The translations under genes were made by a program, and so were the position numbers. Of a DNA stretch of 64,000 bases, positions 17,422 through 21,189 are shown one piece after another. Each line of letters begins with the position of its first letter. Position 1 is the stretch's first letter. Below the pieces are notes generated by a model. It was not told the origin of the DNA, made no database searches, and was given only the letters and a program-made list of their open reading frames with translations. This DNA is from Trichothermofontia sichuanensis B231 (GTDB lineage Bacteria; Cyanobacteriota; Cyanobacteriia; B231). Location: positions 3,181,741 through 3,245,740 of the forward strand of contig NZ_CP110848.1 in the NCBI RefSeq assembly GCF_026240635.1, in the 5' to 3' direction.

Positions 17422-18486
17422 ATGATCGTTGTGATGAAAAGTGGCTCACCGGGAGCCGAGATTGATCGCATTAGTGAAGAACTCAGCCGTTGGGGCCTCA
17501 CGCCGGAAAAGATTGTGGGGAAACACAAGGTGGTGATTGGCCTAGTGGGGGATACGGCGGAGCTGTCCCAGGAACGGATTCAAGAACTGAGTCCCTGGAT
17601 CGAGTTGGTCCTCCGGGTGGAGCAACCCTTCAAGCGGGTTAGCCGCGACTACCGCCACGGCGAGGCGAGTGAAGTGGTTGTGGCCACCCCCAATGGCCCG
17701 ATCGCCTTTGGGGAAAATCATCCGATCGTTCTCGTGGCGGGTCCCTGTTCGGTTGAAAACGAGGCCATGATTATCGAAACGGCCCAACGGGTCAAGGCGG
17801 CAGGGGCTGCTTTTTTGCGTGGCGGAGCCTACAAACCTCGGACCTCTCCCTATGCGTTTCAAGGCCACGGCGAGAGTGCCCTAGAACTGCTGGCGGCGGC
17901 CCGTGCGGCAACGGGCTTAGGCATTATCACCGAATTAATGGACGCTGCGGATCTCGACAAACTGGCTGAGGTGGCGGATGTCATCCAGATCGGTGCCCGG
18001 AATATGCAGAATTTTGCCCTGCTGAAGCGGGTGGGTGCCCAGGAGAAGCCCGTCCTCTTGAAGCGGGGGATGGCGGCCACGATCGAAGAATGGTTAATGG
18101 CGGCGGAGTATATTCTCGCCGCGGGGAACCCGAATGTGATTCTGTGTGAGCGGGGAATTCGCACCTTCGATCGTCAATATACCCGCAATGTTTTAGATCT
18201 CGCCGTCATTCCCGTCCTGCGCACCCTTACCCATCTGCCGATCATGATTGATCCGAGCCACGGCACGGGGGTAGCTGAGTTTGTGCCCGCGATGGCAATG
18301 GCGGCGATCGCGGCGGGGACGGATGCCTTGATGATTGAAGTTCATCCCCATCCCGCCAAGGCTCTATCCGATGGTCCCCAGTCCCTCACGCCGGATCAAT
18401 TTGACCAATTGGTGCAGCGGCTAGGGGTGATCGGGCAGGCTGTCGAGCGGTGGTCGTTACCTATGGCTCCAGTCGCGATCGCCTGA
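17422..18486 (+). CDS. aroF: 3-deoxy-7-phosphoheptulonate synthase (DAHP synthase)
   Basis: A 354-residue type I-beta DAHP synthase. Residues 1-75 form the ferredoxin-like regulatory domain (MIVVMKSGSPGAEIDRISEE). The TIM barrel follows with VAGPCSVENEAMI, FLRGGAYKPRTSPYAFQGHG, LLKRGMAATIEEW, ILCERGIRTF, MIDPSHGTG and ALMIEVHPHPAKALSDG. It condenses PEP and erythrose 4-phosphate, the first step of the shikimate pathway. Confidence 0.96.
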   Translation: MIVVMKSGSPGAEIDRISEELSRWGLTPEKIVGKHKVVIGLVGDTAELSQERIQELSPWIELVLRVEQPFKRVSRDYRHGEASEVVVATPNGPIAFGENHPIVLVAGPCSVENEAMIIETAQRVKAAGAAFLRGGAYKPRTSPYAFQGHGESALELLAAARAATGLGIITELMDAADLDKLAEVADVIQIGARNMQNFALLKRVGAQEKPVLLKRGMAATIEEWLMAAEYILAAGNPNVILCERGIRTFDRQYTRNVLDLAVIPVLRTLTHLPIMIDPSHGTGVAEFVPAMAMAAIAAGTDALMIEVHPHPAKALSDGPQSLTPDQFDQLVQRLGVIGQAVERWSLPMAPVAIA

Positions 18487-18739
18487 GTACGACGGGCATC
18501 GGGGATCGGCAGGGGCTAAGGGCATCCTGCCTGTTCTGGAGGCAGTCGAGCCGATGATCGTTGCCCATCGCCTGCCACAGATAACCTTGAACAATCACGT
18601 GATCACTTTGCGGCGAGCGCGTGCATGAGCTTTAGCGTATGGCATTCTCTTATGTCCATATTATCGGTAGCTTTTTTAGAAATGCCACGATAATCTTCAA
18701 ACTTGTACAACACCCCGACTTAACAAAAATAAAAAATAT

Positions 18740-19612
18740 ATGTCAAATAATCCCTTGGCCGAGGTCTTTGGCTTTCCAAGTAACAGTTTCTCAGAGCAAG
18801 CAGAGCGCTATCGGCGGAACAAGCTTTGTCCATACAATAACAAAGTGCCCAACTGTACCAAAGACAAGGCGAACGACCCATTAGGAGTATGTAGCATTTA
18901 TCACAGAAATTCTCCTGTCATCACTTGTGCCGTCCGATTCAGGCAAAACTGGTTAATTGCCGAGAATGCTGCAACCTTCTTCTTTGGAAGTCAGGTAAAC
19001 TGGACTTCTTTAACAGAGGTTCGGCTAAAGGATGCTAATGGACAATCAGCAGGCAACATAGATGTTGTACCGGTTTCTTACGATGATCGAGGAAGAGTAT
19101 TAGATTTTGGGGCTGTGGAGATACAGGCTGTCTACATATCTGGAAATGTACGAAGACCCTTTGAGACATACATGAGCAACCCTCAAGACTGGGAGAATAT
19201 AGATTGGTCGAAGTTAGCTGACTACTATCCAACCCCAGACTATCTATCATCATCACGCAAACGGTTGATTCCTCAACTATTGTACAAAGGTGCAATTCTA
19301 AATGGGTGGAACAAAAAGCAAGTGGTTGTTGTTCAAAAGAGCTTTTTTGAAACGTTACCTAATTTGCCAAGATCTGAGCAGGAGCAGGCTGAAATTGCTT
19401 GGCATCTTTATGATTTGCAACGACAGAATGATCAGTTTGATTTAATCTTAAGAAATGTTTTTTATACAGAGTATTGGTCAGCAATCAATCGAATATCTAC
19501 ACCAGAACCCGGAAGACTAGAAGATTTTATGGCAATACTTCAGCAGAAGCTAGATGATAAATTGGAAAATCCGCCAGACACACAAACTATTCTAGATATA
19601 CCTTTACAGTAG
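18740..19612 (+). CDS. NotI-like type II restriction endonuclease
   Basis: A 290-residue protein whose start (NNPLAEVFGFPSNSFSEQAE) and RRNKLCPYNNKVPNCTKDKA followed by NDPLGVCSI closely recall NotI. Four cysteines (residues 30, 39, 51, 63) match the iron-binding Cys4 site described for NotI. The probable nuclease core is NIDVVPV...LDFGAVEIQAVYISG, with Asp108, Glu127 and Gln129 as candidate active-site residues (an ExQ variant of PD-(D/E)xK). Its stop codon lies within the ribosome site of the methylase gene, so the two are co-transcribed. Base composition is clearly more AT-rich than the flanks and HIP1 sites are absent, suggesting transfer. The recognised sequence cannot be read from the protein. 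Confidence 0.85.
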   Translation: MSNNPLAEVFGFPSNSFSEQAERYRRNKLCPYNNKVPNCTKDKANDPLGVCSIYHRNSPVITCAVRFRQNWLIAENAATFFFGSQVNWTSLTEVRLKDANGQSAGNIDVVPVSYDDRGRVLDFGAVEIQAVYISGNVRRPFETYMSNPQDWENIDWSKLADYYPTPDYLSSSRKRLIPQLLYKGAILNGWNKKQVVVVQKSFFETLPNLPRSEQEQAEIAWHLYDLQRQNDQFDLILRNVFYTEYWSAINRISTPEPGRLEDFMAILQQKLDDKLENPPDTQTILDIPLQ

Positions 19613-19622
19613 GAGAAAAACG

Positions 19623-20501
19623 ATGCATCAGATTGAATTATTTGATACTAAGCCTTTACAAGAGAGGCAGCATATAGTGAATGTTGCGACTGTACCTCAG
19701 CGTAGCCCTTTTCGCTACCCTGGAGGTAAGACGTGGTTAATTCCGAGAATTAGACAATGGCTATTAAAACAGGGTGGTTTAAACAAAGAATTGATTGAAC
19801 CTTTTACAGGTGGTGGCATTGTAAGCCTAACTGCTGTTTTTGAAGATTTAGTTGGTCAGGTCACGATGGTAGAAAAAGATGAGGGTGTGGCTGCTGTGTG
19901 GCAAACTATTTTAGAAGATGATGCTGAATGGTTAGCAGATGCTATTAGGAATTTTCATTTAACTCCAGAAAATGCAAGAAGAGCAATTGAAACCTCTGAT
20001 CAATCTTTAAGATCTCTTGCTTTTGCTACTATTGTAAAAAATCGTGTTAATAGAGGTGGAATTCTTGCAGATGCGGCAAGTTTCATCAGACAGGGAGAAA
20101 ATGGCAAAGGAATAACATCACGCTGGTATCCCGAAACTCTTCAAAAACGCATACTTGCAATTGCAAAAATGAGACACAAAATCAAATTTATCAAGGGAGA
20201 TGGGTTTGAGATTTGCGAACAAAATGCTCATCGCAAAGATGCCATTTATTTTATTGATCCACCCTATATCAATGCAGGTCGAAGGCTATATCGATATTCA
20301 ATAATTAATCACAAGGGCTTGTTTGAACTTGCTAATAAACTGGAAGGAGACTTTTTAATGAGCTATGACAATAATCAAGAATCACAAGCTTTAGCAGCGC
20401 ATCAAGGCTTTACTATAAAATCTATCTCCATGAAGAATACACACCATGCAGAGAAAAAAGAGTTACTAATTGGACGTGATCTATCGTGGCTTTTGCAATA
20501 A
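19623..20501 (+). CDS. D12-class (Dam-like) N6-adenine DNA methyltransferase
   Basis: A 292-residue protein. Motif X is SPFRYPGGK (residues 28-36), motif I is EPFTGGG (59-65), and motif IV is DPPY (212-215), the order of alpha-class/D12 adenine methyltransferases such as Dam. AGGAG overlaps the stop of the endonuclease gene 11 bp upstream of the ATG. It is presumably the protecting partner of the NotI-like enzyme. An adenine methylase implies that the site contains an A, unlike GCGGCCGC. Confidence 0.9.
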   Translation: MHQIELFDTKPLQERQHIVNVATVPQRSPFRYPGGKTWLIPRIRQWLLKQGGLNKELIEPFTGGGIVSLTAVFEDLVGQVTMVEKDEGVAAVWQTILEDDAEWLADAIRNFHLTPENARRAIETSDQSLRSLAFATIVKNRVNRGGILADAASFIRQGENGKGITSRWYPETLQKRILAIAKMRHKIKFIKGDGFEICEQNAHRKDAIYFIDPPYINAGRRLYRYSIINHKGLFELANKLEGDFLMSYDNNQESQALAAHQGFTIKSISMKNTHHAEKKELLIGRDLSWLLQ

Positions 20502-20592
20502 AGATGCCTTGGGGCGACAAAGGCATAGCTGCTGTCTCACCCCCGTTGATGGTAGCGATCTCCTGGGAAAACTGACTGGGGAACCTTGAACC

Positions 20593-21189
20593 TTAATCGG
20601 GGCTGCCCAGCCCGGAGAAGGAACCCGATTCCAGGTTTAGGGAAACGCCTAACCGCTGCGACAGCCAGACCTCAAACGATCGCATCGGCGATCGCCGTAA
20701 CGCTTCCCCAGAATCGACCATCGGTTCTACCAGAATGGTGAACATCCCCAGCCGATTACCGGCCAACACATCGGTAAACAGGCGATCGCCCACCATTGCC
20801 ACCTGTTCCACAGGTAAACCCATCGCCTGCACGGCCTGCCGCAACTTACGCCGCGAGGGCTTGGTAGCCCCCAGAGAATAGGGGACATCCAGGGCTTCGC
20901 CAATCCGCCCAATCCGGGTCGCACTCAGGTTATTGCTCACCAACCATAATTTGAGATGGGGCCGCAGTGACGCAACCCAGGCTTGCAGCGCATCAGAAGG
21001 GTCCGTTGATTGGAAGGGAACCAGCGTATCGTCCACATCCAATACCAATCCCTTAAGTCCGTAATGCTGCAAGCGATCGAGGGTCAGTTGGAGGATTGGC
21101 CCTCCCAAAACGAGATCAGGTTGTAACAGTGCGCCCCAGGTCATAGATTTGGCGGGGAAAGTTTCCAGCAAGTGGGTTAACGATAGCAA
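20593..21189 (-). CDS. yqeG: YqeG-family HAD phosphatase
   Basis: A 198-residue HAD IIIA protein. Motif I is LVLDVDDTLVPF with the nucleophilic and general-acid aspartates, motif II is WLVSNNLS, the lysine region is GATKPSRRKLRQA, and motif III is VAMVGDRLFTDVLAGNRLG. These match YqeG phosphatases. The family substrate is not firmly known. It is the last gene of the minus-strand cluster GNAT-ruvX-DUF3727-mltG-yqeG. Confidence 0.92.
   Translation of the reverse strand: MLSLTHLLETFPAKSMTWGALLQPDLVLGGPILQLTLDRLQHYGLKGLVLDVDDTLVPFQSTDPSDALQAWVASLRPHLKLWLVSNNLSATRIGRIGEALDVPYSLGATKPSRRKLRQAVQAMGLPVEQVAMVGDRLFTDVLAGNRLGMFTILVEPMVDSGEALRRSPMRSFEVWLSQRLGVSLNLESGSFSGLGSPD

What the first reader, a model, noticed from the sequence alone, without database searches (positions are those of the whole stretch)
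18490..20590. NotI-like endonuclease paired with an adenine methylase: possible new specificity, perhaps HIP1-like
The endonuclease has the NotI N-terminus, four cysteines for the iron site, and a DX..ExQ core. Its partner is a Dam-like D12 adenine methylase, so the site should contain A. NotI cuts GCGGCCGC; the cyanobacterial HIP1 palindrome GCGATCGC differs only in its centre and contains GATC, a typical Dam-class target. Within this 2.1-kb AT-rich island I see no GCGATCGC, whereas the flanks are full of it. A restriction system directed at HIP1 in a HIP1-rich genome would be notable. The link is speculative; absence of HIP1 may only reflect foreign origin.
Basis: inference. Interest (0 to 1): 0.68.

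Follow-up and report, generated by a model that had tools for sequence, protein, structure and literature searches.

The report
Mobile NotI-type restriction–modification gene pair
This is a small imported pair of genes, a DNA-cutting enzyme built like the laboratory enzyme NotI and the adenine methylase that shields the host from it, of a kind found in hundreds of unrelated microbes; nothing ties it to the cyanobacterial repeat GCGATCGC, and what it cuts is still unknown.

Summary
Window 18740-19612 encodes a NotI-family endonuclease: Pfam PF12183 E 5e-61, predicted fold matches NotI at Z 21, Cys4 and D108/E127-x-Q129 intact. Ten bases on, 19623-20501 encodes an intact D12 adenine methylase. 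The island is AT-rich and has no GCGATCGC.

The HIP1 interpretation is not supported. A gap this long is ordinary here (10 of 55 gaps in the window). Carriers of the cassette range from about 2 to 1,300 GCGATCGC per Mb; the sister cassette (92%/87% identical) sits in a HIP1-poor genome. The methylase lacks the Dam-type GATC signature.

The cassette belongs to a coherent, horizontally spread family: 493 relatives in many phyla, and 77 of the best 80 have the D12 gene directly downstream. In another NotI-family lineage, near-identical endonucleases (85%) pair with either D12 or a C5-cytosine methylase plus Vsr, so that site probably contains both A and C. The methylase's recognition loop is conserved family-wide, suggesting one shared target. 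The target itself could not be determined.

Verdict: a genuine, probably functional Type II RM cassette, new member of a known kind, target unknown, HIP1 link dropped.

The parts
18612..20525 (+). extent of the mobile cassette (approximate), inferred from where DNA similarity to the sister cassette in G241 starts and stops
   Evidence: alignments of both edges with L002 and L024; GC drop
18740..19612 (+). NotI-family Type II restriction endonuclease gene (290 aa): Cys4 site C30/C39/C51/C63, catalytic D108, E127, Q129
   Evidence: PF12183 E 5.1e-61; fold match to NotI Z 21.0; invariant residues
19623..20501 (+). D12-class adenine-N6 DNA methyltransferase gene (292 aa), motif I EPFTGGG, catalytic DPPY at residues 212-215
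   Evidence: PF02086 E 3.8e-11; fold match to Mcbe1 7m6b and E. coli Dam; invariant residues in 49 sequences
20040..20132 (+). family-conserved loop of the methylase (NRVNRGGILADAASFIRQGENGKGITSRWYP, residues 140-170), taken as the target-recognition segment; lacks the Dam RxN..G.F signature
   Evidence: alignment, T4 Dam comparison; role inferred by position relative to Dam
17422..18486 (+). left host neighbour, DAHP synthase gene (not part of the cassette)
   Evidence: PF00793 E 1.3e-85
20593..21189 (-). right host neighbour, HAD-family phosphatase gene (not part of the cassette)
   Evidence: PF13242/PF00702/PF09419 matches

Best explanation
This is a self-contained Type IIP restriction-modification cassette carried into the host by horizontal transfer. 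The endonuclease is a NotI-fold nuclease with a D..ExQ active site that should act as a homodimer on a palindrome. The D12 enzyme should methylate adenine N6 within that palindrome and so protect the host. Shown here: the families, fold, intact catalytic and metal-site residues, gene order, purifying selection, cross-phylum distribution and lack of association with HIP1. Inferred: that both enzymes are active, that they share one palindromic target, that this target holds an A and probably also a C, and that it is not GCGATCGC. The target sequence is unknown.
For: Family and fold: NotI Z 21; methylase fold. Pairing: 77 of the best 80 relatives have the D12 gene directly downstream on the same strand; two exceptions end at a contig edge (L027, L091) and one (L103) has a different methylase. 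Spread: 493 relatives confirmed, and the best 80 include Cyanobacteria, Chloroflexi, Nitrospirota, Planctomycetota, Acidobacteriota, Thermus and an archaeal MAG; rare in cyanobacteria, 6 of 386 genomes with any family member. Different insertion sites in G000 and G241. Selection between G000 and G241: dN/dS 0.07 for the endonuclease and 0.17 for the methylase. Decay order: G215 has a broken endonuclease beside an intact methylase, as expected if the methylase is the protective partner. Site contains C as well: Paraburkholderia NotI (C5 methylase + Vsr) is 85% identical to Aeromonas NotI (D12 neighbour), 93% over its third quarter. One target for the family: methylase loop conserved in all members.
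Against: No activity or methylome data were available. The window endonuclease carries L111P, three residues after catalytic D108 in a beta strand, and P64A next to a metal-site cysteine; both positions are otherwise near-invariant, so this copy could be weakened. No palindrome is clearly and specifically avoided in carrier genomes or in the cassettes, so no target is backed by avoidance. The one-target inference assumes that the conserved methylase loop sets specificity, and the A-plus-C inference comes from a lineage whose endonucleases are only about 30% identical to the window's.
Confidence: 0.85

Rival explanations
1. The cassette recognises GCGATCGC (HIP1) or its core CGATCG and restricts or regulates HIP1-rich DNA.
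For: CGATCG and GCGATCGC contain both A and C, as the partner swap demands. The literature records C5 methylases for CGATCG, including XorII and cyanobacterial DmtC (PMC4390886). A vsr homologue was reported with the XorII methylase gene (title of Choi and Leach 1994, cited in PMC4853030), and the C5-paired NotI in L018 also has a Vsr gene.
Against: HIP1 density in carriers spans nearly three orders of magnitude. CGATCG and GCGATCGC are not avoided in cassettes (24 of 29 and 5 of 3.7 expected). The methylase lacks a Dam-type GATC loop. NotI leaves 5' overhangs while PvuI/AsiSI-type enzymes leave 3' overhangs (own knowledge).
Confidence: 0.06
2. The methylase is active but the endonuclease of this particular copy is weakened or dead (L111P, P64A), leaving in effect an orphan methylase.
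For: Two substitutions at otherwise near-invariant columns, one close to the active site. Decayed copies exist in other cyanobacteria (G215, G385).
Against: The open reading frame is intact and dN/dS against G241 is 0.07. The model is confident through residues 101-130.
Confidence: 0.2
3. The D12 enzyme works as an orphan or PD-Lambda-5-like defence methylase and its position beside the NotI-like gene is incidental.
For: PADLOC's best model for the methylase is PD-Lambda-5_B, E 2e-44. D12 homologues without a NotI neighbour exist in Bdellovibrio and Deinococcus plasmids.
Against: 77 of 80 relatives keep the pair adjacent on one strand across phyla. The neighbour matches no PD-Lambda-5_A model.
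Confidence: 0.04

Closest known systems
NotI restriction endonuclease (GCGGCCGC; PDB 3c25, 3bvq)
   Same: Fold over 271 residues (Z 21.0), N-terminal Cys4 segment, D..ExQ catalytic core
   Different: About 16% identity in the structural alignment. NotI's site has no A, so an m6A methylase could not protect it; the partner here is D12, and specificity must differ
Thermus brockianus plasmid pTbrSNM4-1c NotI-family/D12 pair (WP_244363995 / WP_234508656)
   Same: Same two-gene order; 59% and 52% identity
   Different: Plasmid-borne with overlapping reading frames; no tested function known to me
Variovorax/Aeromonas plasmid NotI-family/D12 pairs
   Same: Same partner family, 44% identical methylases with the same conserved loop
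   Different: Endonucleases only 26-31% identical to the window's; a close relative in Paraburkholderia is paired with a C5 methylase and Vsr
E. coli Dam / T4 Dam
   Same: D12 fold and catalytic DPPY
   Different: No Dam-type GATC recognition signature; below the NCBIfam Dam cut-off

Membership tests
NotI-family restriction endonuclease (PF12183) | Profile match above curated cut-off | tested here: met
   206.5 bits against cut-off 22
NotI-family restriction endonuclease (PF12183) | NotI fold | tested here: met
   Foldseek E 7.6e-9; VIA-align Z 21.0, 271 residues, 3.1 A
NotI-family restriction endonuclease (PF12183) | Four cysteines for the iron site | tested here: met
   C30, C39, C51, C63 invariant in 49 of 49; metal content itself not testable
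NotI-family restriction endonuclease (PF12183) | D..ExQ catalytic core (Q in place of K, PMC4081073) | tested here: met
   D108, E127, Q129
NotI isoschizomer | Cuts GCGGCCGC | not testable with these tools
   Argued against by the adenine methylase partner; needs a cleavage assay
D12 adenine-N6 methyltransferase (PF02086) | Profile match, DPPY motif, D12 fold | tested here: met
   43.6 bits against cut-off 22; DPPY 212-215 invariant; fold match to Dam and Mcbe1
Dam (GATC) methylase | NCBIfam TIGR00571 above cut-off | tested here: not met
   42.6 bits against 114.85
Dam (GATC) methylase | RxN..G.F-type recognition loop as in T4 Dam | tested here: not met
   absent in the family members inspected; an equivalent is seen in L009
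Type II RM system | Adjacent endonuclease and methylase genes, conserved as a pair | tested here: met
   77 of 80 relatives
Type II RM system | Methylation blocks cleavage at a shared site | not testable with these tools
   needs biochemistry
HIP1-directed restriction system | Association with HIP1-rich genomes | tested here: not met
   carriers range from about 2 to 1,300 GCGATCGC per Mb
HIP1-directed restriction system | Recognition of GCGATCGC | not testable with these tools
   indirect evidence only
PD-Lambda-5 defence system | Both components A and B present | tested here: not met
   B-like methylase matched (E 2e-44) but the neighbour matches only REase_II

The most novel reading that the evidence does not exclude
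A NotI-fold endonuclease lineage present in hundreds of species across bacterial and archaeal phyla recognises one conserved, so far undescribed A- and C-containing palindrome, and within the wider family near-identical endonucleases are protected interchangeably by an adenine (D12) or a cytosine (C5 + Vsr) methylase. One methylome would then assign the target of about 500 systems at once.
Probability: 0.35. Interest if true: 0.5.

Novelty: new member of a known kind. Interest (0 to 1): 0.36.

Why it matters
NotI is a standard rare-cutter, yet I found almost no characterisation of its large family. The D12-paired branch must cut a site containing A, so it should supply a new NotI-fold specificity, possibly rare-cutting. 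Because the methylase recognition loop is conserved across the branch, one methylome or cleavage assay could annotate hundreds of genomes. The C5/D12 exchange on near-identical endonucleases is a useful case of RM partner swapping and constrains the site. Dropping the HIP1 link prevents a false lead on HIP1 function.

Tried and rejected
HIP1 link: rejected as unsupported. Target by palindrome avoidance: in 161 cassette genes under codon shuffling, and in samples of six carriers, GTCGAC was the 6-mer low in every carrier (max O/E 0.37; cassettes 4 of 16 expected), but it is just as rare in non-carriers such as G085 and many other cyanobacteria, so it is only a lead. Eight-base sites are underpowered at these sample sizes. 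C5 partner specificity: cyanobacterial C5 methylases match at 33-41% over the full length, too weak to call CGATCG. PDB sequence search for a close NotI relative: E 0.021 with profile A1, none with A2; the fold search settled it. Literature: the NotI structure paper was not held; no paper on the NotI/D12 pair or its target was found. Weak inverted repeat 18666-18692 / 20482-20508 (78%) and a shared AACCTTGAAC at 18583 and 20582 near the edges: too weak to call termini.

Full report
What is there. Two genes lie in an AT-rich island of about 2 kb between a DAHP synthase gene and a HAD-phosphatase gene. The first (18740-19612) is a NotI-family endonuclease (PF12183, E 5e-61). The second starts 10 bases after it (19623-20501) and is a D12 adenine methylase (PF02086). 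A structure predicted from 56 homologues (pLDDT 89) matches NotI bound to DNA at Z 21.0 over 271 of 290 residues, far above the next unrelated chain at 8.1. The four cysteines and D108/E127/Q129 are invariant among 49 window-clade sequences and intact here. Q in place of the usual K is what NotI itself has (PMC4081073).

Chance. The GCGATCGC count in the window is far above chance (56 against 1.15), but its absence from the island is not remarkable. Ten of 55 gaps in the window are at least as long, 13% of 2.1-kb stretches sampled across the genome lack the site, and an AT-rich sequence of this composition would hold 0.01.

Distribution. A scan of 84,980 species genomes gave 493 confirmed relatives from two peptide patterns. 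Of the best 80, 77 have the D12 gene directly downstream on the same strand. Two exceptions stop at a contig end, and in L103 a 671-aa PF01555-type methylase takes its place. Identity between phyla stays at 55-60%, which points to frequent horizontal transfer (inference). In cyanobacteria the NotI family is rare: 6 of 386 genomes, of which two (G215, G385) hold broken copies and one (G237) a distant member. The nearest cassette (92% and 87% identical) is in G241 at an unrelated locus. DNA similarity between the two runs from about 18612 to 20525, which I take as the cassette.

Function. Purifying selection is clear: dN/dS is 0.07 for the endonuclease and 0.17 for the methylase between G000 and G241. 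In G215 the endonuclease is broken while the methylase stays open, the expected order of decay of an RM pair. The window endonuclease has two unusual residues, L111P and P64A; whether they weaken it cannot be told from sequence.

What the site may be. The D12 partner implies an A in the site, unlike NotI's own GCGGCCGC. A second constraint comes from elsewhere in the family. The Paraburkholderia endonuclease (L018) is flanked by a C5-cytosine methylase and a Vsr repair gene, while the Aeromonas and Variovorax endonucleases, 85% and 82% identical to it, are followed by D12. A tree with labelled partners needs at least four or five forced changes between partner types. If both partners protect against practically the same endonuclease, the site should hold both a methylatable A and a methylatable C (inference; it assumes both systems are active and that no other methylase in the host does the work). 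The methylase segment aligned with Dam's target-recognition loop is nearly constant in the family, including the Variovorax/Aeromonas branch and the Bdellovibrio and Deinococcus relatives, which suggests one target throughout (inference).

Why not HIP1. Carriers hold from 5 GCGATCGC in 2.3 Mb (Thermus) to 9,911 in 7.7 Mb (Oscillatoria HE19RPO), and G241 has 52 in 3.0 Mb. G241's HIP1 poverty is shared by its cassette-free congener G085 (20 in 3.0 Mb), so it is not an effect of the cassette. The methylase scores far below the Dam cut-off and lacks the T4-Dam-like loop, while the host's separate Dam-family methylase L009 has both the score (132 bits) and the loop. If L009 methylates GATC, as DmtA does in most cyanobacteria (PMC4390886), every HIP1 adenine is already modified. 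Cassette genes hold 5 GCGATCGC against 3.7 expected. None of this strictly excludes GCGATCGC; I put it at about 6%, a little above a random palindrome because CGATCG does satisfy the A-plus-C constraint and C5 systems for CGATCG exist (XorII).

Avoidance tests. Neither the cassettes (143 kb of coding sequence against codon shuffles) nor six carrier genomes single out a target. GTCGAC is low in all carriers but is equally rare in non-carriers, so it stays a weak lead.

Verdict. A real, probably functional Type II RM cassette of the NotI family with an adenine methylase. The kind is known to annotation pipelines: plasmid records already name both genes. I found no study of its specificity. The HIP1 reading should be dropped unless a methylome shows it.

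Noticed in passing
whole genome G000 (window's assembly): HIP1-rich genome (about 985 GCGATCGC per Mb in a 464-kb sample) without any C5-cytosine methylase (PF00145, no hit), although CGATCG m5C methylases are reported as almost coextensive with HIP1 (PMC4390886). Three PF01555 methylases (L175-L177) and a Dam-family enzyme (L009) are candidates for a substitute.
   Followed up: partly
L024 3763-3861 and 5761-5859: The cassette in an Acaryochloridaceae MAG is flanked by a 99-base direct repeat (95% identical) that itself contains GCGATCGC: looks like insertion with a long target duplication.
   Followed up: partly
L018 (Paraburkholderia pBN5) against L017/L019 (Variovorax, Aeromonas plasmids): Endonucleases 82-85% identical are paired with a C5 methylase plus Vsr in one case and with a D12 adenine methylase in the others: partner exchange across methylation chemistries.
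   Followed up: yes
L103 4880-6895: A window-clade NotI-like gene in an Anaerolineae MAG is followed by a 671-aa PF01555-type methylase instead of the D12 gene: a further partner type.
   Followed up: no
window 18740-19612, codons 64 and 111: P64A and L111P depart from 48 and 45 of 49 aligned sequences, next to a metal-site cysteine and near catalytic D108.
   Followed up: partly
G000, G241 and other carriers: Many 6-base palindromes are strongly depleted (for example GGGCCC 1 of 144 and CGGCCG 1 of 107 in the G000 sample), pointing to several past restriction systems.
   Followed up: no
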